Source: Rosellinia necatrix (taxonomy: Eukaryota; Ascomycota; Sordariomycetes; Xylariales; Xylariaceae). Taken from it: a stretch of 64,000 nucleotides of DNA. The DNA lies in the NCBI GenBank assembly GCA_021209875.1, contig JAGYVD010000009.1, positions 2,480,001-2,544,000 of the forward strand, given 5' to 3'. The notes under the pieces were generated by a model. The model made no database searches. It was not told where the DNA came from and saw only the letters and a program-made list of their open reading frames with translations. Shown one piece after another: positions 1 to 57,132 of the stretch; within the stretch, counting starts at the first letter, position 1; the number at the start of each line of letters is the position of its first letter. A program made the position numbers and the translations under genes.

Positions 1-1811
1 GCAAGATAGGCGTTGATGTTTTGACATGACATCAGTGCGGCCCCTCAACTTCTGACGGGAAAGATATACACCCTCTTTGACACAAAGGTCTGTCACCAGC
101 CGAGACTTTGGGCTGGGATTGTTCCTGATCGGGAAATAGTGGACTTTTCTCGCCTTCTTTGGTACCTTCGAGCTCGGTTCTTTGCTTTGCGGGGCGGCAG
201 TCTCCTCGTCTATGCTGATAGTCGGGCGTGCTATAGCCGGCTTCGGTGCTGCAGGAATCATAGTTGGTGCGCTTACTATCATTTCTAGTTGTGTACCCAA
301 AGAAAGGCGTCCGGGTATGTTGACGAGAGATTGGCTCCTTGTTTTCGACAATCGTCACTGACACTATTCGATCTCTAGCTTTGCTGGGCATGACAATGGG
401 ATGTGAGTTTATAATACGATTCAAGTGCATACCGTGTTTGAGCTGACCACATCTAGTTAATCAACTGGGACTGGTAGCTGGGCCAGTTATCGGGGGTGTT
501 TTGACGTCCTTCAGCACTTGGCGTTGGTGTAAGTTAGGCTTATTCACACAACAAGGTTGTAACATAGCTAACAATCCTAGGTTTTTACATTAACCTGCCT
601 ATCGGTGCTATTGCAGCCGTTGCTATCATTCTGCTCCGCATTCCCCAACAGACGGTTAAACCTCCTGCTCGACTCGTGGCACGCCAGCTGCATCATTATT
701 TGGACCTTATAGGTTTTGTTTTGTTTGCTCCGGCAGTTCTGCAGCTACTCCTTGCCTTACAATACGGCGGTAATCAATTTCCATGGAATTCCTCACGTGT
801 CATTGGTCTCTTCTCTGGCTCCGTTGCCAATTTCATTGTCTGGTTCCTTTGGAATCGGCACAAAGGAGACGGGGCTTTATTGCCCCATGCAATGATAGGT
901 CGGACTGCTGTCTGGGCATCGGGAATTTATCAAGGGTTACTGATGGCAGCGGTATACGGAGGCATCTATTTTCTTCCGATCTACTTCCAGGCTATCAATG
1001 CCGCGAGTCCCTTCTTAAGCGGTGTTTATCTTTTGCCAACCATTTTACCTCAACTTGTCACGGCAGCCTCCTCGGGGCTAATAAGTAAGCCAAACCCGAC
1101 TGTGTCTACTTTGCTAAGGGTTAACATACATTGTAGTATCAAAGATAGGCTATGTAATGCCGTTGGGCTTTCTGTCATCCATCGTTCTATCAGTTGCCAG
1201 CGGCTTGTACTCTTTGCTTCAACCTGGTAGCCCAACAGGAGAGTGGGTTGGATTCCAAGTCATAGGTGGCATTGGATCCGGTGTAGGATTGCAAGTGGTT
1301 CGTATAGCCCTTTGGAAACACCTGTCTATACTTTCCTGCTGACCCGAATTCATAGGCCGTCAACGCTATCCAAGCCGTAACGACCGGAGAGGAATTATCT
1401 TCCGCCATGGCTTTCATGGTTTTTGCCCAGTCACTTGGACCTGCCATCGCTCTTGCTTTGTATAACGTCATTTTCGCTGCAAGCTTGAGGATGCAACTGG
1501 CGGGAAGCGTTCCGAATATCGATGCACAAGCTATTATAAATGCGGGGGCTACGGGCTACCGCAGCCTTGTTCAGCCCGGAGATTTGAATGCCGTCCTGAA
1601 AGCTTATGCTAATAGCATTGATCGCGTGTTCTTCTTGGTCGCTGCTCTGGCGGCTTCCGCCGGCATTTTCGTCTGCGGCATGGGTTGGCATGATGTCAGG
1701 AAAAGGAGTGGGCCAGAGCATGAAAAGAAGTCAACAGGAGCGAGGCAGGATGAGGAGAGAGTTGAAAGTAGTCTAGCAGAAAAGCAGAACGCGCTGGCAT
1801 CGGAAACTTAG
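1..1811 (+). CDS. MFS drug/toxin exporter, DHA2 (14-TM) type, 5' partial
   Basis: This is an integral-membrane multidrug/toxin efflux transporter that probably exports the product of the adjacent RiPP cluster; the export role is inferred from position. The 5' end lies outside the window. Visible exons are about 36-87, 140-314, 379-402, 457-528, 581-1084, 1137-1297 and 1356-1811, and they join in frame. Family signatures seen after splicing are [11 protein letters not shown], the glycine-rich [11 protein letters not shown] segment (motif C-like region of DHA2), GPVIGG, then WRWCFYINLP, which is characteristic of DHA2/azole-resistance-type MFS pumps. Many hydrophobic helices follow. The C-terminus is charged, with a [12 protein letters not shown] stretch, and is probably cytosolic. 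It converges on the first UstYa gene. The exact substrate cannot be read from sequence. Confidence 0.9.
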
Positions 1812-2295
1812 GATATAACTTCGCTCCACCATTTACCAATGGAATAGCACTTGTGTTCATATTTTCTAATAGCGAACTCAGTGCATCTTATTGGTTATTG
1901 ATCAGTGCTCGACAGAAGCTAATTACGCAATGAGAAGAAAGAAACAGCATCTTATTGCAGCGCTGAATTATCCTGATAGTAATGAATATACTTTGGAGAT
2001 CGCCACTAGCTACGTGACATATTTGAGAGATGAAGGAAACGCCTGATGTTCTTTGCTGGCCACTCTATCCCTCCTATGCTCCACCACGCTCTTGGGAATC
2101 TCAGCGGGAGCGTCTTTGAGATCATTGTTGACTTGTATCTGAGGCCTGAGTGCGACATCATATCTCTTTATTTAATAATTACGCTAAGAATCTGATCTCG
2201 TCTTCACAGATGCTACCTCTAAGTGTTTGAAACGGCCAGCTAGGTGTCTACTATAGGTTCCTAAGGCTAATCGAAATTTGCAATGCTTCTTTTTA
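1812..2295. other. Convergent intergenic region
   Basis: This stretch separates the 3' ends of the MFS gene and the first UstYa gene. I see no coding capacity or repeat in it. Because both flanking genes end here, it should mainly hold 3' untranslated sequence. Confidence 0.6.
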
Positions 2296-3346
2296 TCACC
2301 CTGCCGAAGTGAAAATAACAGAGGAAAAGTTCGCCTGTGGTAAAGCATAGAGTTCTGACAAATCCCGACATTGATGTATAACACCCCATCCATTAGGGGC
2401 CGTCCACGCATTATCTCCAACAAACAATGGTTTCTCGAGAGTCAGATCACCGGAGCATATAACTGCCTTTTAGCGAGAATGAGTTAACCGACGATCTCAC
2501 AAGGTCATTGGTTCATAATAGATATTTACACATACCTGACGTAGATATTCGATACAATGATTAACATGTTCCTGCGCTGGCAATTCTCTGCCGTGTTGGA
2601 GTTCGATAATTGCATGCTTAATCTCGCCCTAGATGGATATACTAGGTCGGCTCAAGAGTTTTTCTCATGGATATTTGGGAATATAGCCCTAAAGGGAGAC
2701 TTACAACACAGTGAATTTGGTGGAATACCGAGGGAACATATGCTTCGCTTTCCGGTGACACGTTGTCATAATAGTATTTGTTCATGGGCAAGCCCCCTGT
2801 CAAACCATACTTGGTGGGGTGTGCAATCTCAATCCAAGCGCCTTCAAGCATCGGTTAGTTCTTATACTGTCTGCCAACAATTCCAAGGAGTGGGTGTTAC
2901 CAGCAAATATCTCGTCCCATGGTGCCATCGGCTCCACAGACTTGCCATCAAAATTCCAGAAACCATCGTGGGGATCGGAGTTCACAAATCGAGGATCCTC
3001 CGAGAACAATCGACGAAAGGTAGGAGCTGAGTATGTTTATCAGTTATTGGCCTGCCGCTGTTTGATCATCCGAGATTCTCATCTTCTCACTTAGTATAAA
3101 CTGATCTTGAAGCGTCGAGTCTTGACGGCAAGAGCCGATTTGGAGTGATGCATATCCACCGAGAAGGAGGCCGGTAAATCCCAAGGCTAACGCAAGGAAT
3201 TGCAGTCGTGCTGGACGAGAAGGAGCTGGCTTCTCGCAAGCGGTACAGACATGCGAAACTTCAGTCTGGTCCACAATAGGTTGATACAAGCGTGATGGGA
3301 GGATTGACCAAACATTGATGCCCTTCGAGGATGGCATTTTGCTCAT
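2296..3346 (-). CDS. UstYa-family (DUF3328) oxidase, copy A
   Basis: This is a membrane-anchored oxidase of the UstYa/DUF3328 family, whose members carry out oxidative cyclisation and related steps in fungal RiPP pathways. The five-exon model is 3346-3091, 3026-2901, 2841-2705, 2628-2536 and 2466-2296, giving 260 aa, in frame throughout. A single transmembrane helix lies at about residues 48-67 after a short cytosolic tail. The two HxxHC motifs that define the family are both intact: HQIHC at 168-172 and HVNHC at 194-198, the latter followed by IEYLRQ and an AVICSGDLTLE segment. A phase-0 intron sits directly after the first HxxHC plus one residue. The ATG at 3337 is an alternative start. The leader carries an (AG)n tract. 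Pairing with copy B in subfamily is inferred from the HQ[IL]HC and LRQ context. Confidence 0.88.
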
Positions 3347-3356
3347 TGCGAAACAA

Positions 3357-3380
3357 AGAGAGAGAGAGAGAGAGAGAGAA
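3357..3380. repeat. (AG)n dinucleotide tract in leader of UstYa copy A
   Basis: A run of about twelve AG units lies just upstream of the inferred start codon of the UstYa gene on the minus strand, where it reads as (CT)n. Pyrimidine tracts of this kind are common near fungal transcription starts, so a promoter role is possible. It may equally be a neutral microsatellite. Confidence 0.85.
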
Positions 3381-4285
3381 ATCTTTTTGCCTGGGGAACC
3401 TGCCACGAATGGGTTCCCTCTCGATGATCTTCTGGGGCGCGGACTTGTCTAAGTCTATGCCATTCCATGGGATGTTATCTCAACCCCGCGTTTCCAAGGC
3501 CCTCATTTCCGTGGCCGTCGCCCACAGGATCGTCGCTCCGAGTTAGGTAGAGGTTCTTTTGTCGAATGTGCAGTGGCATGACATTCGCCCGAGCCTGCCA
3601 TCCCTGGACGGGATAAGTGTGATACAGGAAACGCACACGAAAGTGCACATCAGCAGCAACCTGATTTCAATTGGCCAATAAAGGTTCGACTTGTCAGCAC
3701 AAGTCACACGCTCGCGGCACTTCACGCCGGGAAGATGGTACAAGATGCGACATCTACTATGCACGTCAGCTTAATTACGTATCCTCCGCCTAACAGCATT
3801 AATGGGCTTTTGGGCCGCGGGTTCTTGTCATCTGGGTCGGGCCTGGCAATCTTACGCGGGGCAAGTCGCCATCGCGAGATTCTGCTGCATGGTCACCCTC
3901 TCACCGTGGGGTAAGCTGAGTTCCGCATGATAGTTTTTGTCTAGGACTTATCGTCTGCACCCGGTGTCATGAAGTTGGCTTTCGTTGAACTGTTGTGGAT
4001 GGATCCTTTCTACAGCCTTATCTCTACGTGTTATGCGAATCATTAGCTATACCGGCTGCTGATGGCTCTTTCAGCGATGAGTCGGGTACATCCGGAATCA
4101 CTGCAGGCAATCAAGGCACTGCAAAACTGGATTTTGTTTCTTTTCTTTATGGAAAGCGGGGGAAGGGTGTCGTGCCTTATCAACTCGGCGTAACGGCTTC
4201 TCATAGATTGGCATGGACCATATGCCCGTGCGTGAGCCCCTGAGAAAAAAAGAAAAAAAAAGAAGACTATTGTGACGACTCTTAG
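3381..4285. promoter_or_regulatory. Intergenic: upstream region of UstYa copy A, downstream of copy B
   Basis: No coding sequence is supported here. The stretch should contain the promoter of the UstYa copy A gene (minus strand) and the 3' region of copy B. A CGG-N6-CCG inverted triplet at 4083-4094 matches the general layout of Zn2Cys6 factor sites. It lies near the end of copy B rather than at a promoter, so its meaning is doubtful. Confidence 0.4.
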
Positions 4286-5075
4286 TCACGTTGTTGTGGA
4301 GTTCTGGCCTGGCCATTTCATCTGCTGTGCGCTCGTCCATTGCACCAGCTGCTCCCAACTTCTGCACTGGTGTTTAGTGCCAAATCCATCCACTCCGCCC
4401 GCTTCATCCGCAACCTCCAACGTAGTATCAGCGTGGCACATAAGAGTCTGTCGCAGAAGATCGATGCAATGTTGGACATGATGTGGTTGCAGATCCCTCG
4501 GTAAATCTGCTTCGTTGATCTTCTCCCCGTGAACAGCTGCTTTGTGAGAGTGCCAATAAGCTTGTCGAAGCCCATTCTATGCGCGTCAGTAACTGTTGGT
4601 AATCCGCTAGATAGAATCTTCTTACCAGACAATGCAGTTGGTGGAACGAAGAGAAGGTAGTTCTTGTGGGAGCAATGGTTGAGTGCACGAAAAAGCCGCC
4701 GTCCATGGGAAACAACTCGTCCCACAGTTGATCGGTGTAGAGAGAAGGTTCTTCAGTGAAGCTTATGTTATAGCTGAAGCCGTATGCAACTTTTTGGACT
4801 ATAGAAGCTTTTGTGAGCATCAGATATTCAAAACTTGGAAGCGCATGTAACATACGCGTAATTGCTGGATTGACTCTCTCTTGAAACGTCCCATTTCTCC
4901 CAAGAGCAAATCCAAAGATACCACCCAACATGCCGGAGAATACTAGTAGTACTGCAGCAGCAATTCCCTTTGGCCATGCCAAAAAGCGAGGGTTTCCCTG
5001 TGGCGTATTGTCTACCTCTTCTTCGTCATTGTTGGCAGGAGAGTATTTATGGCCGTAAAGTTGCGGGAATAACAT
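4286..5075 (-). CDS. UstYa-family (DUF3328) oxidase, copy B
   Basis: This is the second UstYa-family oxidase, tandem with copy A on the same strand. There are two exons, 5075-4626 and 4576-4286, giving 246 aa. A transmembrane helix lies at about 36-58, after an acidic cytosolic tail. The defining motifs are HQLHC at 145-149 and HVQHC at 183-187, followed by IDLLRQTLMCHADTTLE, a near-consensus UstYa block. A conserved WDELFP segment precedes the first motif. The phase-0 intron again falls right after HxxHC plus one residue. The 5075 start was chosen because it gives the usual short tail before the helix; the frame stays open to an ATG at 5240, but that extension looks non-conserved. It is divergent from copy C across a 566-bp promoter region, suggesting co-regulation. 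Confidence 0.9.
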
Positions 5076-5641
5076 GGTGACTTCCTTCAGTTGCAGCAAG
5101 AATGAGATAAAAGTAGGTCTTTCATGGTGTTTTTCGGTGTTCTGGATCAAACGCCTTTTACACATCAGCCCTTTCCATTGCCGGTAATATGTTGCTGACA
5201 AAGGGGCGTTCATAGAGACACTCCCCATCATTTGATTCATCTTACACCATAGCGTGGTTGAGTACCCTGCTCGCTATTCTCTAATACCCCGCTTGTCGGA
5301 GACTCTGCCGTGCTAAGCTTACATCACTCGGCAGGGGAATGTGGTGGTGTCGTCGATTTAAGAAAAGATCTTCATATGACTGCATTATCTACGATTTGTA
5401 GCAGTGTAGAAGCATAGGGAGGGAATGGCCCAAATGGTTGCGGGCTAGGAGCTGCTACCATTCTGCTCCTGGTATTCCCTCACCCAGAATCGCAGCCGTT
5501 TTCTCACGGAAGTCCTCACGCCAAGGTTGCAACCATTGTTTCCAGTTGGACATCAGCGCTGAGATCACGACTTCGTATTCAGAAACCTCTATCCCATCTT
5601 ACGTCCTTGAGTGCTTGGAGCTATTCGCCTTGAACAATACT
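5076..5641. promoter_or_regulatory. Divergent promoter between UstYa copies B and C
   Basis: This 566-bp stretch separates two outward-facing UstYa genes and should hold both promoters. It contains an inverted CGG-N8-CCG element at 5297-5310. The same spacing occurs once in the divergent promoter between the precursor and copy D (7885-7898). Zn2Cys6 cluster regulators typically bind paired CGG triplets, so this is a candidate site for a pathway regulator, by inference only. Confidence 0.45.
5297..5310. promoter_or_regulatory. Inverted CGG-N8-CCG element (candidate Zn2Cys6 site)
   Basis: CGG and CCG triplets are separated by eight bases within the divergent promoter of UstYa copies B and C. 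The spacing equals that of the element in the precursor/copy D promoter. The spacer bases themselves are not obviously alike. By chance, such a pattern occurs about once per 4 kb. Confidence 0.35.
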
Positions 5642-6595
5642 ATGGCCGCCGACAACCCATCCTACAAGTATGATCTTCTCGAAGGACATGCCGTGGTGGC
5701 CCAGAGTCAGAAGGACCGAAGAACGAAGCTATTCCTGTACACTGCCTTGGCAATATCAAGCCTCTTGAACGTTCTCTTGGCGGTAAGATGGTTCGTGTCG
5801 ATACCGAAAGAGACTCATTTCCTAAATTTAGGCCGCTCGTCATACGGTGGGGCGAACCTTTCCTCTCAAAAATTCACTCTAAGCTGACAACTCTTCAGCG
5901 GGTCTTCTCAACGATGTACCCGTGCCGTTCCAATGGACCTCAGAATACAGTGATATCAACAATCCCCGGCTAGATGAACTTTGGCAATTCGATGGGATGT
6001 TTGATTATGGCATGATTGCTCTGACGGATGCCGAGATAGACTCATTGCATCTACTCCCGTCCGAGCAGAGCTTCCCGTGGGATCCAGAGAACAAAAGCTT
6101 ATATCACTTGAACGGGCACCATGGCCTACACTGCCTAGTAAATACTACCCATACTTCCCCTTCCAGTATATCTTAAGTAAGTTACTAATATCCCGATGTC
6201 TCAAGCGCCTCGTCTACACTAGCATCTCTTCCTATCGCGCCTCGACACCTCAGAAAACCCCCTTTGCGCACATAATGCACTGCCTAGACAGTATACGACA
6301 AGATATCATTTGCGCTGCTGACGACTCCCCCCGCTATCTTACAAGAAACGGCTCTCACTCTGGAGAAAGCCAATTGCGTTTTTGTCGCGATTTCAGCAAA
6401 CTGAACGAATGGGCTCGAGAGCGTGACGCGTGCTTCCGTCAGCAGCATGACCTCGCAGATGTTATGGCTCCGATTGAAAAGTTCAAGTATTGTAAGACCG
6501 AGGAGAATAGGGAGGGGTACCTTAACCGGGTGAAGGGCTATTTTGACATGCCAAGTGATTGGCAGTTTCCCGAGCCCGCTGTTCCGTCATGGTGA
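5642..6595 (+). CDS. UstYa-family (DUF3328) oxidase, copy C (HGxHC subtype)
   Basis: This is the third UstYa-family oxidase. Exons 5642-5846, 5899-6137 and 6206-6595 join in frame to give 277 aa. A transmembrane helix lies at about 30-48. The first family motif is HGLHC (143-147) and the second is HIMHC (170-174), followed by LDSIRQDIICAADDSPRY. This LDSxRQDIxCxADD block and the HG[LM]HC form distinguish copies C and D from A and B. Two introns match copy D in position and phase: a phase-1 intron after an S-Y pair, and a phase-0 intron after HxxHC-Leu. The first of these uses a weak GTGGGG donor, chosen because it restores the aligned SYAGL segment, so a different donor is possible. It is divergent from copy B. 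Confidence 0.87.
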
Positions 6596-7258
6596 GCTGA
6601 AACTGATTGATGGTTGTTATATATTCCAGAGATGGAGAGTATGATCCATGGTTTGAATCTCTTTACCAGTCAATTTTTGGGCCTCTTTGAGAATTAGTAC
6701 TTGGATTACGATACAAGAAGTCATACGCAACTAACATGTCAAACCTCGGTCTAAATTTGCAAAACCTGTTTTTATAAATAAAGCACAACTAGTTATTCTA
6801 ACTTTTGTAAGGGGAGGTACGACCCACAGTGTCGAGTGGTTACCTACTACGGTGGGCTTCGTGTCAATTACTAGGATCCATCCCATCTACAACTTCGCTT
6901 TTCGACTGCTACACTTTCTAAACCCTTGAAATGAAAATTAGATGCTTGTGCACGAATTGTAAGGATAATGTTTTTAGTCGTTTTGGGGTTAGTGTGGTTC
7001 CTACTTGGCCTCTCTCTATCCATGACCAGGGCCAGCCACACTCTCAGGGGTCCCCTGGTGCTACTAGTTCAGTCACCCATTCCATTGGTAAGTGCTTGGC
7101 GTTATGATGACAATAGATTCATGATTGGATAACTAGCACTATCAATTGGACGCCAGGTCAAGATCACCACAAGTCCGAGCGCATCTTCCCTCTGTTCCCC
7201 CTTCCTGATCCCTCCACCTATCATCACTCTTGCCGCCGTCGCAAGCATTCCCTTCCTT
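6596..7258. other. Intergenic between UstYa copy C and the RiPP precursor
   Basis: The stretch should contain the 3' ends of both convergent flanking genes. From 6931 an ATG opens about 52 codons up to a plausible GTAAGT donor at 7088, with a CLCTNC cysteine pattern near the start. I cannot extend it into a convincing gene, and it may be a scrap of a decayed coding region or mobile element. Confidence 0.4.
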
Positions 7259-7480
7259 TCAAATACCGTAGGCGTCATGAAGCTCCTTGGCGGGGTCAAC
7301 AATGTTCTCCCGAGCCTTAATGCCGTAGGCGTCGTGCAGCTCCTTAGCGGGGTCGATGATATTGTCCCGGGCCTTGATTCCGTAGGCGTCGTGAAGCTCC
7401 TTGGCTGGGTCGATGATGTTATCCCGAGCCTTGATGCCGTAAGCGTCGTGGAGCTCCTTGGCGGGGTCAATAATGCTATC
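7259..7480 (-). repeat. 57-bp tandem repeat array encoding the RiPP core units
   Basis: Three full 57-bp units plus a final 48-bp unit encode the repeated peptide. Units 1 and 2 differ at eight bases, of which seven are silent and one changes Ser to Asn. The last unit carries Asp-to-Glu and Ile-to-Val changes confined to the amino-terminal side of the unit. The array is therefore old enough to have diverged silently but is held constant in protein. Confidence 0.9.
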
Positions 7481-7546
7481 TCGGGCTGGCAAGGCTAAGG
7501 CGCTGATGCCGATACTGAAAGCAGTAATGATGGCGAAGAAACGCAT
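7259..7546 (-). CDS. Repeat-containing secreted RiPP precursor (four HDAYGI core units)
   Basis: This 95-aa protein is read here as the ribosomal peptide precursor of the surrounding UstYa cluster. Residues 1-18 form a classic signal peptide (MRFFAIITAFSIGISALA), followed by LPAR. Four tandem units follow at 23-41, 42-60, 61-79 and 80-95, with consensus DNIIDPAKELHDAYGIKAR; the last unit ends at the stop directly after YGI. DPAKELHDAYGI is identical in all four units, while the codons differ at many third positions, showing selection on the peptide. Each of the first three units ends in K-A-R and the next begins with Asp or Glu. The Tyr-Gly-Ile piece fits the Tyr-X-Ile pattern of cyclised dikaritin cores. 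It is intronless and divergent from copy D. The maturation sites and the cross-link are inference. An alpha-factor-like pheromone is less likely, given the sequence and the UstYa neighbours. Confidence 0.85.
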   Translation of the reverse strand: MRFFAIITAFSIGISALALPARDSIIDPAKELHDAYGIKARDNIIDPAKELHDAYGIKARDNIIDPAKELHDAYGIKARENIVDPAKELHDAYGI

Positions 7547-7884
7547 GATGTTCTATGGTCTGGAGAATTGATGTAAGGTGAAGTTTAATATTGTTGGTCC
7601 GCTTCGCTAATTGTGTATTAGTGAGGGTAAACATAGGGGAAAGGCGAGACTTGTGCGTCGGAGGAAAGGGGAAGGGATTTAAGATGAGAAACAACTTGCG
7701 TTTTCAATGCGCGTCTTCGGGTAATGATGGATATGAGTTGTTGCTCACTTGTGATTTTCGAATTAGGTTCTGGCATATTATATGCAAACTTCCTCCGCTC
7801 CTGGTGTGGCCGAGCTATGAGCCTTAGCGATTTCTCTTTCGACATTCGGCATTTACTACTCGCACTCCTTACGGGTCAACTTCT

Positions 7885-7898
7885 CGGTGGAAGAGCCG
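7885..7898. promoter_or_regulatory. Inverted CGG-N8-CCG element (candidate Zn2Cys6 site)
   Basis: Paired CGG/CCG triplets with an eight-base spacer lie about 340 bp upstream of the precursor start. They share spacing with the element at 5297-5310 in the other divergent promoter of the cluster. A role as a binding site for a cluster regulator is inferred. Confidence 0.35.
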
Positions 7899-8057
7899 GT
7901 ACTTTCCTTCACATGACGAAGACTAGAAGATACATGCGCAACAGCCGACCGAGTTTCCATATCAGGAAATGAGCAGCATAGATTGGTGATCAAGGAGCTA
8001 TTAGAGAATAGCACCAGAAGTGTAGAGTACTCTCAATCCAAATTTCCTTCTGCCGAG

Positions 8058-8354
8058 GTTTGCATGCAACGGGCCATTATCGCTGCTTCTGCCTCCAAGT
8101 GGGAAAGGCTACCGATTTGCTCGATGACCGTGCTACTGCGTCCTGCAAGCAAAAGGCCGTCGTCACCTTTTCTGTAGCCGCGACACAGATCTTCTCTTAG
8201 TGTCAGCACCACGTCAGCACCACTGCAGTTCACATGCAACGGGTCACGATTGAGTCCTTGGGCAGAATCAGAATGAAGCTTCACCAAATATCAGCACTAC
8301 TGCGTTCTGCATGCAACAGGTTACTGTCACGTTAACTTTGATCCAACAGGTCAC
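8058..8354 (+). repeat. Degenerate direct repeats (CATGCAAC-GGGTCAC motif)
   Basis: Related segments occur at about 8058-8080, 8130-8157, 8213-8247, 8291-8325 and 8341-8354. The best two share a CAGCAC..CACTGC..TTC..CATGCAAC core followed by GGGTCAC or AGGTTACTGTCAC. Spacing is uneven, about 77-90 bp for the closest copies. They lie upstream of UstYa copy D and could be repeated regulatory elements or a decayed minisatellite. Confidence 0.55.
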
Positions 8355-8631
8355 TTATACCGCCATCAGGTAAATACATCCCTGTATACAAAATTCCCTC
8401 ATGTGATCTGTACCAACTACATCGAAGTTGTGCAATCATGTTGAATCATGACCCTACTTGACGTCTTCGGCTTGGATTGTGCTGCGTTGCTTTATTAACC
8501 TAAGACTCCTTTTCCATATCATATACCCACACGCCTCCATGCATTGTTGAAAAGTCTCCGGAATATAAAGCTGTAATTATTGTGAACTTGAAGAGCCTTC
8601 GTCAAAATCAAACTCTCCATTTGCTAGAGCA

Positions 8632-9739
8632 ATGACCCTCCCTAGTTTCATGAATCCTATCCCAAAACTAAAAGAGATGTCGACGTCGACGGAACGGAGT
8701 TCTACATCTTGCGATGAAGAAAAAGACTTGCTGAGAAAGCATGAGGATGATGATGAATTCTTCCACTTGCCTATTCATCGACGCAAAGCCCCCTTTCGAT
8801 TGGGCCTCGGGTCCTCTCTTGCAGTATCGGTTGCTCTACTTCTGTCTATCTGCTTCAATCTATACACTGCATTGAGATACCACCGCAAGGTTTGCGTGGC
8901 TAATACCCAGTTGAAACCATACGTTGTCGCGGCGCCTAGCTACAGTGAGTTTTTCACTCACCAAGATCAGAAGAAGAATCTATTTTTTGACCGTTTACTA
9001 ATTACCATGCTCATACTAGCCGGTTTGGAATACAACAAACTTATAGAGTTCCATGCAATGACCGACTGGCAGAGTGAAAATACGACAGTTGCCGATGCGT
9101 TGTGGGATGCTATAGACATCTCTCCAATTACGATCGCCGTTTCAAAAAAATGGGCGGCCGAGCATGGCCTACCAGAGTCGAACACATTTTATTGGGATGA
9201 AGACAAAGCTCTCTACCATATCAAAGGCATTCACGGGATGCATTGTCTGGTACGGTCACCCTTTCACTCCTCCTTAGACTTCCTTGTTAATCCGGGAAAC
9301 GAGAACACGCTGCCAATCCAATTCAATGACCCTTACTTATTGTTACCTCTAGAAATACTTGCGACATTTCATTGTCAAGAGCGGTCGGGAGGGTAAGCCT
9401 CTGGCCCCTCATGTGGTAGGGCATATGGGACACTGTCTGGACTCCCTACGCCAAGACATCATGTGCACGGCTGATGATACTCTGATGCCGGGGTTGGTTG
9501 AGCACAGGTTGGGAGACAAGCAGATATTGCAATGTCGGGACTGGGAGGCACTGAACCGCTGGGCTAAGGATCCAGAGCGCGACTCGTGCTTCCAACAGGC
9601 CTCGGACTATAAGCATGTGGCACACAATCTTGAACGTCACGCTGTTTGTCCCCCGGGCTCACAGTATGATGCGGTCTCGCGCAAGTATTTTGAGATCCAC
9701 GGTCACAAGAACTTGTTCGAGCCTGACGATGAAGAATAA
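8632..9739 (+). CDS. UstYa-family (DUF3328) oxidase, copy D (HGxHC subtype)
   Basis: This is the fourth UstYa-family oxidase and closest in layout to copy C. Exons 8632-8944, 9020-9249 and 9353-9739 give 309 aa, in frame. An acidic, Ser-rich cytosolic tail is followed by a transmembrane helix at about 58-78. The motifs are HGMHC (176-180) and HMGHC (205-209), the latter followed by LDSLRQDIMCTADDT. A C-terminal cysteine-containing segment includes CRDWEALNRWAKD, which matches the CRDFSKLNEWARE segment of copy C. Introns after S-Y (phase 1) and after HxxHC-Leu (phase 0) match copy C. It shares a divergent promoter with the precursor, the strongest positional argument that it acts on that peptide. 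It is the last recognisable gene of the cluster on this side. Confidence 0.9.
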
Positions 9740-13681: not shown

Positions 13682-15017
13682 TCACATGCGCTTCCGAGGC
13701 GTTAGATTAATAGAATCGCTAACGAAACGAGTGCTAGCGGAGAATAGCACAGAGGGGTCTATCCATTTAATATTCGGCTGCTTCCCTTCGGGAGTCATAA
13801 AGACATCCACCGGCCTAAGATAAGGCTTGGCCTCTTTTGCCGTAAATACCGCCGTAATATCGTTTGCCCTTTCGGCTTCCTCATCATACCCCGGCCCATG
13901 CACTTTGTATACGGCCATCGTGGTGTTCACGCCAAAATTGCCGTTCGGCTGGCCCGCCCACTGTGTGTATCCCGCAGGTAGGATGCTCGAGTCGAAATAC
14001 GTATTCATGAATAAACTGCGGTGCAATGCATTCCACGGCCTGCCGAGCGAACACTTATCTGTAATGATAGGTGCGATGGAGCTATTGGCTGCTAGGAGTT
14101 GCGAACCCGAAATATAGACACCATACTTGTTTGCGAAAGTCGTATTGGTGCCTTTCCAGGCCGTGATGCCGCCTCCGCAGTTTCGCAACGACAGACTTGA
14201 GCTATCAATAAATAGCGTACCGAAGCCGTAGAGAAAATCCGTCTGACCTGCCACCACGCTGTCGTAGAAGTAGGCGTTACCTAACTTGCCGATATATACC
14301 TTCGTTCTCGGGTTAATTATGATACCTTCAGTCATGTGCGGAGGGTTCACCAACCGTGTCCTGCCAACTGTAGAAGCCGCAAGAATAAAACCCAGCGTTC
14401 GCACGGCTGATCCCCACGGCGTGCGCCGGGCCGTTTGAGTATGGCGCGTATTCATTTCGGAAATCGATATTGTACGCTCGGAAATCAGTGCATCCAAATG
14501 GCGTGTCACCGGGCACTGGGAAGCCTGTCGGGCCGGAACCGGTCAACGTGGCGTTCAGGTTAGGCCCGACGGTGAGAACACCGGTATACACGTTATCCGG
14601 GAATACGGCATCGTGATTTGCCGAGTTCCAATAGATCTGGACATCGTTTGCGTGAGGCGCTTCATAGCTGATGTCTGCGTAAGGTTCTCCGCGGACAGGA
14701 CGGTCTGAGACGCCCAAGAGTGTAAGCGGGCCTTGTCGGGTTACATTCAGTTGTTCCGTATACGTGCCGGGGGCGATTAAAATAACGTGGGAAGTCGTGT
14801 CGTTGCGGAGGGAAGAAATGGCACCTTGGATGCTTTGGAACTTGGCGCTTTTATCTGTCTGGCTCACGTAGATCGTCCCATCGGGGCAGCCATCGAGCGG
14901 GTTGGCAGTTTTTCGCTGGCATTGCCTGAAAGTCCGGGCTGGGACAGATTTCGTAGCACCGGCAATGACCCCATTGCATCCTAATGCTAGAAGGACGAGG
15001 TTCCTGAGCTTAGCCAT
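13682..15017 (-). CDS. Pectin methylesterase (CE8), secreted
   Basis: It de-esterifies methylated homogalacturonan in plant cell walls, preparing it for polygalacturonase. Exons 15017-14355 and 14299-13682 flank a 55-bp intron and give 426 aa. An N-terminal signal peptide of about 19 residues is present (MAKLRNLVLLALGCNGVIAG). The parallel beta-helix family motifs are GTYTEQL, SWQDTV with the candidate catalytic Asp at about 220, GQTDFLYG with the second catalytic Asp at about 242, and LGRPW near the C-terminal third. The 22-residue spacing of the two Asp fits CE8. The length is somewhat above a typical fungal CE8 because of an N-terminal linker. It is divergent from the GH28 gene, and the shared promoter holds CreA-like sites, so joint carbon-catabolite control is likely. 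Confidence 0.9.
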
Positions 15018-15626
15018 GTGTATGGAGATAGAACCTAAACGGCCGCCGACAGACAGCAGCTCTATTCAAGCCAGACGCTATGAGACATGGTCGGCCTGGG
15101 TTGACTGCCGACGCTCCCTTTTAATCTTTAACCCGATAACGAATTATCATCTCGCGACGGCTAAAGAGCCTTTTGAAATCCAAAACGACTCCTAAGTCCC
15201 CCCAAAAGAGTGCGACGCCTCAACCACACTGCCCATCATGCCGGTGTGAGTGGTGGAATAATTGGTAGGCCACTGATGCTCTGTGCGGAGAAATCGTGTT
15301 TGGACACATACCATTTACTGGACCAAGTCAATGGTCATAGTGTGGGGGACAACGACCACCTCCCTGGTACCCCAGACAGACCCCATTATATGCCCCGGGT
15401 TCCCCAACGAAGCTGTCGCTTGACCGACCCGGATTTTATGCTAATTTATGAGTGATGGAAAATTAACTTCGCCCTTTACGTGTAAGATGTTATCAGAGTC
15501 TACTAGGGTCATATTGTAATGAGAGACAGCCGCCGAAATGCATGTTAGGTATTTGAGCATCCTCCCAGAATGGTTGACTGGGAGATTCATTCATTCAGTG
15601 TGATGCGCTGACGGGCAATAGACGAG
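15018..15626. promoter_or_regulatory. Divergent promoter of the pectinase pair
   Basis: This 609-bp region separates the outward-facing pectin methylesterase and GH28 genes. At least three matches to the CreA consensus SYGGRG lie within about 60 bp: GTGGGG at 15342-15347 (+), CCCCAG at 15370-15375 and CCCCGG at 15393-15398 (both -). Clustering of such sites is typical of glucose-repressed fungal hydrolase promoters. Confidence 0.5.
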
Positions 15627-17094
15627 ATGCTTCAGAAAATCGCAGGGGCTACGGCCATCGCCATCTTGGCTGCCTCGGCGGCCGCGGTGCCAGCGGCGGA
15701 GGGACATGCTAGTAAAGTCACTATCTCGCGACCCAATCTTGAGCCATTTCCGCACAATTCTGGCCGGCTCAGGCCACTGTCGCCGCCTCGCACGAAATCC
15801 TGTTCCGTGACGGCGCTGGGTAGCGGGAAAGACGACGCCGCCCAGATTCTCAAGGCTTTCCATGATTGCAATAACGGCGGCACGGTCGTCCTGGATGGGA
15901 GTTATACAATTGCCACAGCGCTGGACCTGACATTCCTGGAGAGCGTCGATGTCGCGCTCTCGGGGAAAATCACATTCAAGGCAGATATCGACTATTGGGT
16001 GAAGAACTCATTCAAATACGCCTTCCAGAATTCATCCGCGTTCTGGCAAATCGGCGGGAGGGATGTCAACATCTATGGCGGAGGCGTAGGCATCGTAGAT
16101 GGCAATGGGCAGCCGTGGTGGGATGCTTTCGTGTCAAATCAGTCGTTATTGCGGCCCATTTCCCTCCTCCTGGATGGGCTCCAGGGCGGTTCCGTCACGG
16201 GTGTGCACATGATCAATCCACCAAACGTAAGCGCGACGCCCACAAGGTCAGGGTGGCCGAAGCAGACACTGACGAGAAATAGTGGTTTAACCTCATCGCG
16301 AACAGCTCGGATATTCTCGTCAGCGACATGGTGCTCACAGCCAAATCGTCAAATTCCAATTCCGTGAAGAACTCTGACGGCTGGGACACGTATCGCTCAG
16401 ACCACGTCGTGATCCAAAACTCCGTCATCGACAACACGGACGACTGTGTATCGTTCAAGCCAAACAGCACAAACATCGTCGTGCAAGGCCTAAGATGCAC
16501 TGGATCGCACGGTATCTCCGTAGGCTCCCTGGGGCAGTACATCGACCAGTACGACATTGTCGAGAACGTGCACATCTACAACAACACGATGTCGAACGCC
16601 AGCGACGCGGCCAGAATCAAGGTCTGGCCCGGTGTCCACTCCGAGTTCCAGCCGATCCTCTCAGGCGGCGGCGGCTCGGGGTACGTGAAGAACGTCACGT
16701 ATGAGAGATACCAGAGCACAAACAATGACTGGGCGATCGAGGTCAACCAGTGTTATGGGCAGTCGAACAAGACGCTCTGCGAGCTGTACCCCTCTAACAT
16801 GACCATCTCGGACATTTACTTCATCGATATGTGGGGGACAACATCGTCAAAGAACGATCCCAAGGTCGGCACACTAGTCTGCTCATCTCCTGAGGTAAGA
16901 TCACTTCACTCGTCGTGTTATGTGTTATGGCAATGTGGTGGTATCCCAGCTTACATATATCATATATCCGGCAGCAATGCTACAACTTCCATGCGAAGAA
17001 CGTTTCCATCACCTCGCCAAAGGGAAAGTCTCAATGGATTTGCTCCAATTTTGACACTTCGAACCTAGAGGGGTTCGATTGCGTCTCAGGGTAA
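15627..17094 (+). CDS. Polygalacturonase-type GH28 glycoside hydrolase, secreted
   Basis: It hydrolyses alpha-1,4 linkages in pectic polysaccharide. Exons 15627-16226, 16283-16894 and 16975-17094 give 443 aa. A signal peptide occupies about residues 1-23 (ends near AAAVPAAEG). The GH28 active-site motifs are present: NTDDC (251-255, catalytic Asp pair), GSHG with His276, and RIK (311-313). Several N-glycosylation sequons are visible in the beta-helix. The long N-terminal region and a [15 protein letters not shown] segment (in place of the endo-PG RGxxWW pattern) suggest an exo-acting or xylogalacturonan-type enzyme rather than a simple endo-polygalacturonase. That substrate call is uncertain. 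It is paired divergently with the CE8 gene. Confidence 0.9.
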
Positions 17095-54509: not shown

Positions 54510-56354
54510 TTATATGAGCTCAATTTTCGTCAGCTTAGGTACGCCACCCAATGAGGGCAAGTCCGTGGGTTTGCAGCTGATAGCTTCTTGCGCATACGCA
54601 TCGCCTAGAAAAGCATACGCTTTTCCATTGCCCGTCTGTAATTGTTTCAAAATGTAAGGAACCTTACTTCCGGGTATCATAGCTAAGGAATCAGAGATAC
54701 GTAGAGATTCGGGCCCGAACCCTATCCACCCCGTGTCGGTCCTAAAGAGCCGCCTTCCAAGCGTGTTCACCTGAACAAACTCATCAAATTCTCGAACATC
54801 ACTCCTTACGCTCGCTGATAGTGAGCTCGGATTCTCAGAAGCAAACCATGCAACCCACATCTGATATGCTTTCTGATGGGACGACTCTGACGGATCGTCA
54901 CTCCATCTTTTCAATTCCAGGTTGCCAGATATTAAGATAGAAAACTCCCGCTCTCTTTCCCATACTGTATCACCTCCCTCCTGTATCTTGTGGTTCTGTT
55001 CGACTTCGGTCCCCATACTCGCGGTCTTCACCCACATATCTAGTAGTGGTTTGCCGGTAAGTATCGAATTACGTTTCGGGTAACCGGGGGCATTAGCGAC
55101 AATGTTGCCGATAAAGTGCGCTTCGGTGGCAACTCTCCCTGCGCTTGTAAGTGCCCACGTGGGCTTTGGGTTACCAGGAACATGGTATAGGTTCAGTCGT
55201 GTTGTTCGATCTGAGTAGACCAGATGGGATGATACATCCAACCTAGCGTTCCAATCTGGCACCCAGCTAGGCAGACCCTGCACCGTTGGCTCCGCAACAG
55301 ATGATGGCAAGACGTGACTGAGGAGATCAAGGGTCCCCGATTGCTCAATTATAATCATTGCTATATCCTGAAATAGGCTTGCGGCCGACGGATAGTTATT
55401 AGTATGAACTAGATCCCGGATTTTCTTATCTTTCAATTTTAGCCCTAGCATACCATATATTCGATCACGGGGATCTGAACATAACCGCGGGCGGAAAGCC
55501 TTCATCAGTTCCACAAAGTCGTAGCCTTCAGCATCGTCGGGAGCGATCATGGTGTGTATCTGGTCGTATCGTAATATTGAGCGGAATATCGACAACCCGC
55601 CGTTGGCGGGACTGGGTATGTCTAGGTAGCCGCGGGGGTAACCGTCGGCGACTCGAAGAGATGCCCAGCAGCAATTTCTTTCATGATCGCGCAGGCACTC
55701 AAAAGCCCTGCCAAGTGTCGCCCTGTCTATCCTACGCTGTCCGCATTGGAACAAGACATTCTGGGCTAGGGCAAACTCTTGAACCGTCCATACCCGAGTC
55801 CACCAGGCGGTACCGAAGAACCCAATAAGCGAGTCCCGCAAGGCTTCGGAGTGGAGGTTCAGGCCGTCAATTGCGATGTGAGGTGATAGGGCCGGCTCGT
55901 AGTGCTCATTCACATGGGTTGCGGCTCTCTCGAGGAAGGATATGCCGATATCAAAAGGCGTCGACACCGGGGACAGGAACACGAGAACCAGTGACGCCCG
56001 GGAATAGACACTGCCCATGAGTCTTACTTGTATAGCCCGTTCTGCGACATCGTTCTGATTAATGCAGATAGCGTCGACCCAGAGGCACTGGGAGGGGTCG
56101 CGGGAGCTGAGGGTCTCCAAGATGGTATACAAGTTCTTGGTGACGGAGAGTTGCATGTTGGAGACCGTGAGCGGCACAGTGGCCTCCTCGCAGCCCCAAG
56201 CATACGAGAGGGCCGTATATGAGGGCAGAGGGCGGTCCGTAAGAGAGGCTCTTTCCAACGATAAGCGAAAAGGCGGGTTGTCTCCCTCATCTTGTCGGCT
56301 CAGGCGAAGAATACGGATCTCGTTATCTTGCAACGGGCAGTAGGCAGTAGCCAT
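54510..56354 (-). CDS. HET-domain (heterokaryon incompatibility) protein
   Basis: This is a protein with the HET domain, found in fungal allorecognition and programmed cell death, though many family members have unknown roles. The single exon gives 614 aa from MATAYCPLQDNEIRILRL; an open frame extends to 56507, adding 51 residues unlike the family. HET blocks in order are SYTALSYAWG, LWVDAICINQND followed by QVRLMGSVYSRA, and TAWWTRVWTVQEFALA. A C-terminal region of about 300 residues follows with PRDRIYGMLGLK and a GTEVEQNHKIQEGGDT stretch, typical of long HET proteins. No NACHT, ankyrin or TPR domain is fused. The frame is intact and uninterrupted. Confidence 0.92.
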   Translation of the reverse strand: MATAYCPLQDNEIRILRLSRQDEGDNPPFRLSLERASLTDRPLPSYTALSYAWGCEEATVPLTVSNMQLSVTKNLYTILETLSSRDPSQCLWVDAICINQNDVAERAIQVRLMGSVYSRASLVLVFLSPVSTPFDIGISFLERAATHVNEHYEPALSPHIAIDGLNLHSEALRDSLIGFFGTAWWTRVWTVQEFALAQNVLFQCGQRRIDRATLGRAFECLRDHERNCCWASLRVADGYPRGYLDIPSPANGGLSIFRSILRYDQIHTMIAPDDAEGYDFVELMKAFRPRLCSDPRDRIYGMLGLKLKDKKIRDLVHTNNYPSAASLFQDIAMIIIEQSGTLDLLSHVLPSSVAEPTVQGLPSWVPDWNARLDVSSHLVYSDRTTRLNLYHVPGNPKPTWALTSAGRVATEAHFIGNIVANAPGYPKRNSILTGKPLLDMWVKTASMGTEVEQNHKIQEGGDTVWEREREFSILISGNLELKRWSDDPSESSHQKAYQMWVAWFASENPSSLSASVRSDVREFDEFVQVNTLGRRLFRTDTGWIGFGPESLRISDSLAMIPGSKVPYILKQLQTGNGKAYAFLGDAYAQEAISCKPTDLPSLGGVPKLTKIELI

Positions 56355-57132
56355 CGGAATCGGAATCGATTTTATCATTGCTGTAGGAGCTGAAAGACAT
56401 ATTCGTTGTATGATGCATCTTGCTCCATGACTACCCAGGTACCTAATTAAGAAGGTATTTGGTAATTGGTTTGTTCTAAGACTACGCCTAACTAGGGAGG
56501 CACTCACACAAGACCCGACCGGCCGGCCAGGGCTCCGATAAAGGGCCCTATCTTAAGTGCCCACACCGCTAAGGCCTTCATCATGCCCCCCCCAATACAT
56601 ACCTATATCGTTACAGGCTATCTAGGTATAGTTATCTGTTCGAGCGCATATTTCATTTTGATTTGGCATAAAGCGCCCGCCGTAGTCCACCTCAAGGATC
56701 CGTGGAACTAGGTAGCTCCATCCGCGATTAGGAAAAGACAATGATACAAACAGTATCCCTTACCGCCTTAGTTCCTCTCAAGTTGCCTCGAAAGCGGCCC
56801 CCTTCGTCCGTGCGCATGATGGCACCTAATGCTGGTTCAGTGATCGTGTCTTATAAAAGACAAACGCTAGCGCAGAAGCTTCATCTTTATGTATAGGTGA
56901 CGTGAGGAACATGGAAATTTTGACCCGAATTCAGTGTGAATTATCGAGATAATGGCACGATGACCGAATTCTGACAAGCACGGGATGCAGTGAAGGCCCG
57001 TAGGGACGGTACGCTCAACTTTACACGCAACAAGACAAAGACCGTCCTCCCAATCGCTAAGAACGTGACTCGCTCGTATCCGACAATTCATCGCTTTCGA
57101 CGCCCCTCAAGTTCTCCGGCCAAGCCAACAGC
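56355..57132. promoter_or_regulatory. Upstream region of the HET gene
   Basis: This tandem intergenic stretch should hold the HET promoter on the minus strand and the 3' end region of the next gene. No further coding sequence is supported. Confidence 0.5.

What the first reader, a model, noticed from the sequence alone, without database searches (positions are those of the whole stretch)
1..9739. Apparently undescribed UstYa-type RiPP (dikaritin-like) gene cluster
Seen: a secreted tandem-repeat peptide gene, four intact UstYa/DUF3328 oxidase genes and a DHA2 MFS exporter are packed in 10 kb with two divergent promoter pairs. Known: clusters of this make-up produce ribosomal cyclic peptides such as ustiloxins, phomopsins and asperipin. 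Inference: this locus makes a new cyclic peptide from an HDAYGI-type core. Partners known from relatives (tyrosinase, S41 peptidase, methyltransferase) are absent here and may lie left of the window or be truly missing.
Basis: partly seen in the sequence, partly recalled or inferred. Interest (0 to 1): 0.92.

Follow-up and report, generated by a model that had tools for sequence, protein, structure and literature searches.

The report
Fungal UstYa-type cyclic peptide cluster
A fungal gene cluster appears to build a small ring-shaped peptide from a repeated secreted precursor using oxidase genes and an exporter; it looks like a new family within a known class, unusual mainly in how its precursor seems to be cut.

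Summary
Window -398 to 9739 holds an MFS exporter, four intact UstYa (PF11807) genes, each with two HxxHC motifs, and an intronless 95-aa precursor with a secretion-type N-terminus and four repeats ending in HDAYGI. The expected partners were not found nearby: no tyrosinase or S41 match within 1 Mb. The family is conserved: a Xylaria strain has precursor and U4 relatives on contigs of identical length, and a Diaporthe batatas U3 relative has a tail matching the antisense of a precursor with the same 19-residue period. Repeat copies differ mostly by synonymous changes. The core, DAYGI, resembles the EDYXI printed for ustiloxins and phomopsins. The precursor has no dibasic pair; joints are (L/I)xAR|(D/E), so two published screens built on dibasic sites would not list it. 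Most likely a UstYa-type RiPP with a Tyr-Ile ring closed without tyrosinase; the chemistry is inferred, with no expression or mass data. It is not alone: 6 of 13 other UstYa stretches of this genome hold a repeat-peptide ORF. Verdict: new member of a known kind, with a plausible processing variant.

The parts
1..1811 (+). MFS exporter gene, DHA2-like; 3' part of a 582-aa protein whose start codon lies 398 bases left of the window
   Evidence: Model; Pfam MFS_1 126.4 bits, TRI12 42.3 bits; NCBIfam TIGR00711 DHA2 efflux 151.1 bits, below its cut-off of 230.2
2296..3346 (-). U1, UstYa-family protein, 260 aa, 5 exons, HQIHC and HVNHC
   Evidence: PF11807 61.9 bits; relatives 81% in Diaporthe sp. 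PMI_573, 76% in Xylariaceae sp. FL0594
4286..5075 (-). U2, UstYa-family protein, 227 aa, 3 exons, HQLHC and HVQHC
   Evidence: PF11807 98.0 bits; no protein with U2 as best match among 19 hits
5642..6595 (+). U3, UstYa-family protein, 277 aa, 3 exons (5642-5846, 5899-6137, 6206-6595 with stop), HGLHC and HIMHC
   Evidence: PF11807 91.6 bits; 96% identical over 277 of 277 aa to Rosellinia necatrix P0011, 81% to Diaporthe batatas P0012
7259..7546 (-). precursor peptide gene, 95 aa, no intron, hydrophobic N-terminus then four repeats
   Evidence: relatives P0001 (Xylaria sp. FL1042) and P0002
7262..7486 (-). four 57-base (19-aa) repeats, AR(D/E)(S/N)I(I/V)DPAKELHDAYGI(K); joints LPAR|D, IKAR|D, IKAR|D, IKAR|E; no dibasic pair
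8632..9739 (+). U4, UstYa-family protein, 309 aa, 3 exons (8632-8944, 9020-9249, 9353-9739 with stop), HGMHC and HMGHC
   Evidence: PF11807 92.4 bits; 91% over 294 aa to P0003 of Xylaria sp. FL1042
5076..5641 (.). head-to-head intergenic region of U2 and U3
   Evidence: Start codons
7547..8631 (.). head-to-head intergenic region of precursor and U4, with three exact ATGCAACRGG sites (8064, 8234, 8311) and one with a mismatch (8341) inside degenerate 15-37 nt repeats
   Evidence: exact ATGCAACRGGTYA occurs 5 times in the 49.1-Mb genome, 2 of them here, against 4 matches of the backward-read control pattern

Best explanation
This is a UstYa-type RiPP biosynthetic cluster. Shown: the genes and their integrity, the repeat precursor, selection on the repeat, and linkage of precursor with U4 (Xylaria, by equal contig length) and, indirectly, with U3 (Diaporthe). 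Inferred, in order: the precursor enters the secretory pathway; Kex2 or a similar protease cuts after the Arg of (L/I)xAR, giving three peptides of 19 residues and a last one of 16, each with the core and a DPAKEL segment that may serve recognition; the UstYa proteins, membrane-anchored and with two HxxHC motifs as likely catalytic site, oxidise the Tyr-Gly-Ile part, most likely joining the Tyr oxygen to the beta carbon of Ile two residues on, as in the Y-x-I ring of ustiloxin and phomopsin but without a tyrosinase, as in asperipin; other UstYa proteins make further oxidations, for example desaturation; trimming proteases encoded elsewhere free the core, ending at Ile as the last repeat already does; the MFS protein exports the product. 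Ecological role unknown.
For: Four PF11807 genes plus MFS_1 in 10 kb; two HxxHC motifs in 4 of 4. Selection on the repeat: 43 synonymous, 12 non-synonymous pairwise codon differences, DPAKELHDAYGI unchanged in protein although 7 of its 12 codons vary. P0002 keeps ELHDAYGIKAR and a C-terminal HDAYGI while its spacer differs in sequence and is one residue shorter. Linkage: P0001 (precursor) and P0003 (U4, 91%) of Xylaria sp. FL1042 are on contigs of identical length, 276,746. The D. batatas U3 relative has a 72-aa tail whose best match among 2030 open segments of the window is the antisense frame of the precursor, 108 against at most 54 in 1000 shuffles; read back by codon complement it permits DAYGI twice, 19 residues apart, 0 of 5000 shuffles doing so twice; the window's own antisense frame, as positive control, permits it at 4 places 19 apart. 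Published: EDYXI core of ustiloxins and phomopsins (PMC6339444 section 10); 13-membered Tyr-Ile ether ring of phomopsins, AprY for asperipin with no tyrosinase in its cluster (PMC6514808 passages); PhomYc, d, e tied to dehydro-residues (PMC10880069 passages); Kex2 tolerates varied P2 and prefers aliphatic P4, LxxR (PMC8528282 passages).
Against: No transcript, peptide or product data. No dibasic site, whereas repeats of the ustiloxin, phomopsin and epichloecyclin precursors are flanked by KR (PMC6514808 passages). No tyrosinase, which ustiloxin and phomopsin need. After cutting at KAR a K-A-R end remains that removal of basic residues alone would not clear. The D. batatas tail does not permit His before DAYGI, so HDAYGI as such is not conserved there. 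No U2 relative was seen, so not all four oxidases need belong to the pathway. The promoter element was found only in the precursor/U4 gap, so it gives no sign of shared regulation. Structure models of U4 and U1 relatives were too poor (mean pLDDT 46.1 and 49.8) to test the active site.
Confidence: 0.82

Rival explanations
1. The repeat protein is a secreted linear peptide precursor (pheromone-like or cell-surface) and the UstYa genes beside it act on something else.
For: Most repeat precursors in print (6120 of 7878) are not accompanied by UstYa genes (PMC7329392 section 7). No product data here. 7 of 13 other UstYa stretches of this genome showed no repeat ORF at my threshold.
Against: Precursor linked with U4 in Xylaria and, indirectly, with U3 in D. 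batatas; the Tyr is present in each copy of the window and of P0001 and P0002. Precursors annotated as mating factors are, with three exceptions, not next to UstYa genes in print (PMC7329392 abstract).
Confidence: 0.1
2. It is a full dikaritin pathway whose tyrosinase, peptidase and methyltransferase are encoded elsewhere in the genome.
For: The genome has 22 exon-level tyrosinase-family matches on other stretches, and one S41 match on contig C3.
Against: The nearest tyrosinase match on the same contig is about 1.6 Mb away (C11:874,662); the genome has 13 other UstYa stretches that could own them. The asperipin cluster has none (PMC6514808 passages).
Confidence: 0.2
3. The cluster is a remnant: some UstYa genes are decaying and no product is made.
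For: No U2 relative as best match among 19 hits; U1 and U2 match the Pfam profile only over their C-terminal halves.
Against: Reading frames open with GT..AG introns and both motifs in 4 of 4; U1 relatives have the same make-up at 72-81% identity; repeat copies are kept alike in protein.
Confidence: 0.05

Closest known systems
Asperipin-2a cluster (AprA, AprY, AprT, AprR)
   Same: Small cluster of repeat precursor, UstYa protein and transporter, no tyrosinase; Tyr-ether rings
   Different: One UstYa gene against four here; has a reductase, none seen here; core FYYTGY. Compared through a review (PMC6514808 passages), not by sequence
Ustiloxin and phomopsin clusters (dikaritins)
   Same: Secreted repeat precursor, several UstYa genes; core Y-x-I preceded by D (EDYXI in print, DAYGI here, with one Ala between D and Y)
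   Different: Those have KR-flanked repeats, a tyrosinase and a methyltransferase (PMC6514808 passages); no tyrosinase and no dibasic site here. Not compared by sequence
Kex2-processed repeat proteins (KEPs)
   Same: Secretion signal and tandem short repeats, often beside UstYa genes
   Different: Published screens use dibasic KR, KK, RK or RR (PMC7329392 section 13) or KR, RR, KK (PMC6339444 passages); this precursor has no dibasic pair
Repeat precursor beside a UstYa gene on contig C5 of the same genome (L037:1942-2733)
   Same: Repeats joined by non-dibasic LK(V/A)R|D (three LKVR, one LKAR) and a first joint LQTR|E; no dibasic pair
   Different: 45-aa unit, different core; neither precursor finds the other in the genome searches
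Ustiloxin-like RiPP clusters reported in Hypoxylaceae
   Same: Same fungal order by recall; ustiloxin-like clusters in Hypomontagnella and two Hypoxylon species (PMC8403587 passages)
   Different: Found there by similarity to known precursors; not compared by sequence here

Membership tests
UstYa-type RiPP / dikaritin in the wider sense (UstYa as class-defining enzyme, two HXXHC motifs; as told in PMC12048977 section 23) | UstYa (PF11807) protein(s) with two HxxHC motifs | tested here: met
   4 of 4 proteins
UstYa-type RiPP / dikaritin in the wider sense | Precursor with N-terminal secretion signal and repeated core | tested here: met
   Four repeats; the signal rests on hydropathy alone
UstYa-type RiPP / dikaritin in the wider sense | Tyr-containing core oxidised by UstYa | not testable with these tools
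   Tyr present in 4 of 4 copies; oxidation needs mass spectrometry
Dikaritin in the first, five-part sense (Ding et al., as quoted in PMC12048977 section 23) | Tyrosinase in the cluster | tested here: not met
   No PF00264 match near C11:2.48 Mb; nearest on that contig at 874,662
Dikaritin in the first, five-part sense | Methyltransferase in the cluster | tested here: inconclusive
   None but a DNA cytosine methylase among 20 flanking ORFs given to Pfam, of 135 listed; no genome-wide methyltransferase search
Dikaritin in the first, five-part sense | Transporter or peptidase | tested here: met
   MFS_1 exporter present; no S41 match near
Dikaritin in the first, five-part sense | Multiple DUF3328 (UstYa) proteins | tested here: met
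   Four
Kex2-processed repeat protein as screened in print | At least three repeats between KR, KK, RK or RR | tested here: not met
   No dibasic pair in the 95 aa; joints are (L/I)xAR
Kex2 substrate in the wider sense (aliphatic-x-x-Arg) | Arg at P1, aliphatic P4 | tested here: met
   LPAR, IKAR x3; IPAR and IKAR in P0002, LLAR and IKAR in P0001. Only the motif was tested, not cleavage

The most novel reading that the evidence does not exclude
A family of UstYa-type RiPPs, present in Xylariales and Diaporthales, whose precursors are cut at non-dibasic (L/I)K(A/V)R|(D/E/N) sites and so lie outside published dibasic-based screens, and whose Y-G-I ring is closed by UstYa proteins alone with no tyrosinase. 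A second precursor of the same genome (L037), with LQTR|E and LK(A/V)R|D joints and no dibasic pair, suggests a class and not one odd gene.
Probability: 0.45. Interest if true: 0.55.

Novelty: new member of a known kind. Interest (0 to 1): 0.42.

Why it matters
If right, it adds a conserved cyclic-peptide family with a testable core sequence and a list of exact masses. It shows that genome screens which demand KR-type sites leave precursors out, and it offers a case in which up to four UstYa oxidases act without a tyrosinase, so that each one's reaction (ring closure or desaturation) can be assigned by single deletions. The link to Rosellinia, Xylaria and Diaporthe (plant-associated fungi, by recall) gives a reason to look for the peptide in plant tissue.

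Tried and rejected
Rejected: the Pfam match of the precursor to MCM_WH_arc (27.8 bits, cut-off 26.1, no stretch passing on its own) is a sum of weak matches over repeats, taken as spurious. Rejected: first splice choice for U3 (5783-5898), which broke the frame; the 5847-5898 intron gives a protein that aligns end to end with R. necatrix P0011. Tried without result: structure models of U4 and U1 relatives, mean pLDDT 46.1 and 49.8, too poor for a fold search, so none was run; search of solved structures with U4 and with alignment A3, 0 matches; a shared promoter element across the cluster, exact sites found only in the precursor/U4 gap. The original phomopsin paper is not held.
Full report
What is there. 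The window is G000:C11:2,480,001-2,544,000 of an unnamed 49.1-Mb genome in 12 contigs, fungal by its genes. Reading the sequence and open frames, and placing introns by hand, gives six genes: an MFS exporter (+, -398..1811), U1 (-, 3346..2296), U2 (-, 5075..4286), U3 (+, 5642..6595), the precursor (-, 7546..7259) and U4 (+, 8632..9739). All frames are open. Pfam puts 4 of 4 U proteins in UstYa (PF11807) above the curated cut-off and the exporter in MFS_1; a DHA2 efflux model is the best NCBIfam match, though below its cut-off. Each U gene has two HxxHC motifs and one hydrophobic stretch in the N-terminal part looked at. U3 and U4 share 32% over 226 aa; other pairs align over at most 141 aa.

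The precursor. It has 95 aa, no intron, a hydrophobic N-terminus, then four 19-aa units, of which the last ends at HDAYGI and the stop codon. Between copies there are 43 synonymous and 12 non-synonymous pairwise codon differences, 3 of the 12 being the last column (Lys against stop); synonymous sites are about 12.5 of 57 per unit. The block DPAKELHDAYGI has no amino-acid change while 7 of its 12 codons vary. The copies are thus old enough to differ and are kept alike in protein; these counts are pairwise and not independent. No dibasic pair occurs; the joints are LPAR|D, IKAR|D twice and IKAR|E, which would give three peptides of 19 residues and one of 16.

Neighbourhood. Left of the exporter, 30 kb fetched: a DNA cytosine methylase (-3582..-1698), a SUR7 family protein, a membrane transport protein and a Sir2 protein by Pfam; a kinase-like frame at -10796..-9057 was read by eye. 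Right: pectinesterase (13,685-15,065), GH28 (15,612-17,065), pirin, an HhH-GPD DNA repair protein, Sen1 helicase and a 2OG-Fe(II) oxygenase and, at 54.5-56.6 kb, a HET protein. I gave Pfam 20 chosen ORFs (6 left, 14 right) of 135 listed (39 of at least 110 aa left, 96 of at least 100 aa right); 15 of 20 matched a family. Small or intron-rich genes may be missed. Genome-wide there are 22 exon-level tyrosinase matches, none close: the nearest on contig C11 is at 874,662. One S41 match lies on C3.

Relatives. The precursor search found 2 proteins with E at most 1 among 1716 candidates: P0001 of Xylaria sp. FL1042 (85% identity over 58% of the query) and P0002 from a JGI source (65% over 60%). P0002 has two units, ends in HDAYGI and keeps ELHDAYGIKAR while its spacer changes and is one residue shorter. 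P0001 has one whole unit and a second that leaves the repeat after HDAY. U4 gave 8 of 708 candidates at 1e-20; the best, P0003, is from Xylaria sp. FL1042 at 91%, on a contig of 276,746 bases, the same length as that of P0001, which I take as the same contig. An alignment of U1, U2 and U3 gave 19 of 3555 candidates at 1e-10: by best match 10 belong to U3, 9 to U1 and 0 to U2. U3 is 96% identical to a Rosellinia necatrix protein over its full length and 81% to a Diaporthe batatas protein. The organism is therefore probably a Rosellinia or near relative (Xylariaceae, Xylariales), an inference from one protein.

The Diaporthe tail. P0012 of D. batatas (Diaporthales) has 72 extra residues after the U3 end. 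Against 2030 open segments of at least 20 aa in the window its best match (108) is the + strand frame antisense to the precursor; the next, 54, starts where that frame stops; the best segment elsewhere scores 48; 1000 shuffles of the tail reach at most 54. Read back by codon complement it permits DAYGI at two places 19 residues apart, and AYGIKAR once; 0 of 5000 shuffled tails permit DAYGI twice; the window's own antisense frame, as positive control, permits it at 4 places 19 apart. Most likely the gene model ran U3 into a convergent precursor gene, so that the order U3 then precursor, and the 19-residue period, are kept between two fungal orders. The DNA itself was not seen.

How it works. 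The closest published core is EDYXI of ustiloxins and phomopsins (PMC6339444 section 10); the phomopsin ring is an ether between Tyr and Ile (PMC6514808 passages). DAYGI has the same Tyr-x-Ile spacing. Ustiloxin needs UstYa, UstYb and the tyrosinase UstQ; asperipin needs the UstYa protein AprY, and its four-gene cluster has no tyrosinase (PMC6514808 passages). PhomYc, d and e are tied to dehydro-residues (PMC10880069 passages). I therefore propose ring closure at Tyr-Gly-Ile by one or two of the four UstYa proteins and further oxidation by others. The joints fit the wider Kex2 motif, Arg at P1, variable P2 and aliphatic P4 (PMC8528282 passages). All of this paragraph's proposal is inference.

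How unusual it is. One search puts UstYa matches on 13 other stretches; I fetched all 13 as 10-kb pieces. By self-comparison of ORFs (periods of 8-59 aa), 6 of 13 hold a clear repeat peptide: on C8, C1, C10, C2, C3 and C5. Low-complexity hits of two further stretches and other frames of the same repeats were left out of this count. The 30 kb left and the 54 kb of the window right of the cluster hold none at the same threshold. The C5 and C10 precursors also have no dibasic pair; the C5 one is joined by LQTR|E and LK(V/A)R|D. Such clusters are thus common in this genome. In print, 7878 KEPs were found in 1345 of 1461 strains, 22% near UstYa genes (PMC7329392 abstract and section 7); that screen required KR, KK, RK or RR (section 13), and Le Marquer et al. 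speak of KR, RR or KK (PMC6339444 passages). Text searches for HDAYG, DAYGI, AYGIKAR and KELHDAY listed only papers on other subjects, judged by their titles; supplements could not be searched.

Verdict. Confirmed as a UstYa-type RiPP cluster and a new family within a known class, with a plausible new way of cutting the precursor. Literature seen: abstract and sections 7 and 13 of PMC7329392; passages and sections 10 and 16 of PMC6339444; passages and sections 22 and 23 of PMC12048977; passages of PMC6514808, PMC8528282, PMC10880069 and PMC8403587; all others in search listings only. The original ustiloxin, phomopsin and asperipin papers were not read.

Noticed in passing
L037:1942-2733 (contig C5, 1,553,942-1,554,685), minus strand: Repeat precursor of 248 aa with 45-aa units ending LGNLK(V/A)R|D and a first joint LQTR|E, beside a UstYa gene; a second precursor of this genome without dibasic pairs.
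   Followed up: partly
L028:4972-5520, L033:6374-6805, L030:1405-1986, L031:3307-3729, L036:6038-6454: Five more repeat-peptide ORFs beside UstYa genes (units SESDIDVADAFKR, APWPLYVAKDAKRSEEAA, TDAITFRYPIFRVAQG..KR, DNDDIWLWKK, FNYTNNIDNAV..).
   Followed up: partly
window 8050-8355: Degenerate repeats with ATGCAACRGG between precursor and U4; 2 of 5 genome-wide exact ATGCAACRGGTYA sites lie here (control pattern 4 matches). Possible regulator site or old duplication.
   Followed up: partly
P0013 and P0017 against U1: U1 is closer to a Diaporthe protein (81%) than to one from Xylariaceae sp. FL0594 (76%); horizontal transfer or hidden paralogy could explain it.
   Followed up: no
window 13685-17065: Pectinesterase and GH28 genes side by side next to the cluster.
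   Followed up: no
L009:6418-8302, minus strand: DNA cytosine methylase gene directly left of the cluster's exporter.
   Followed up: no
window 54513-56552, minus strand: HET-domain protein in a 680-aa frame.
   Followed up: no
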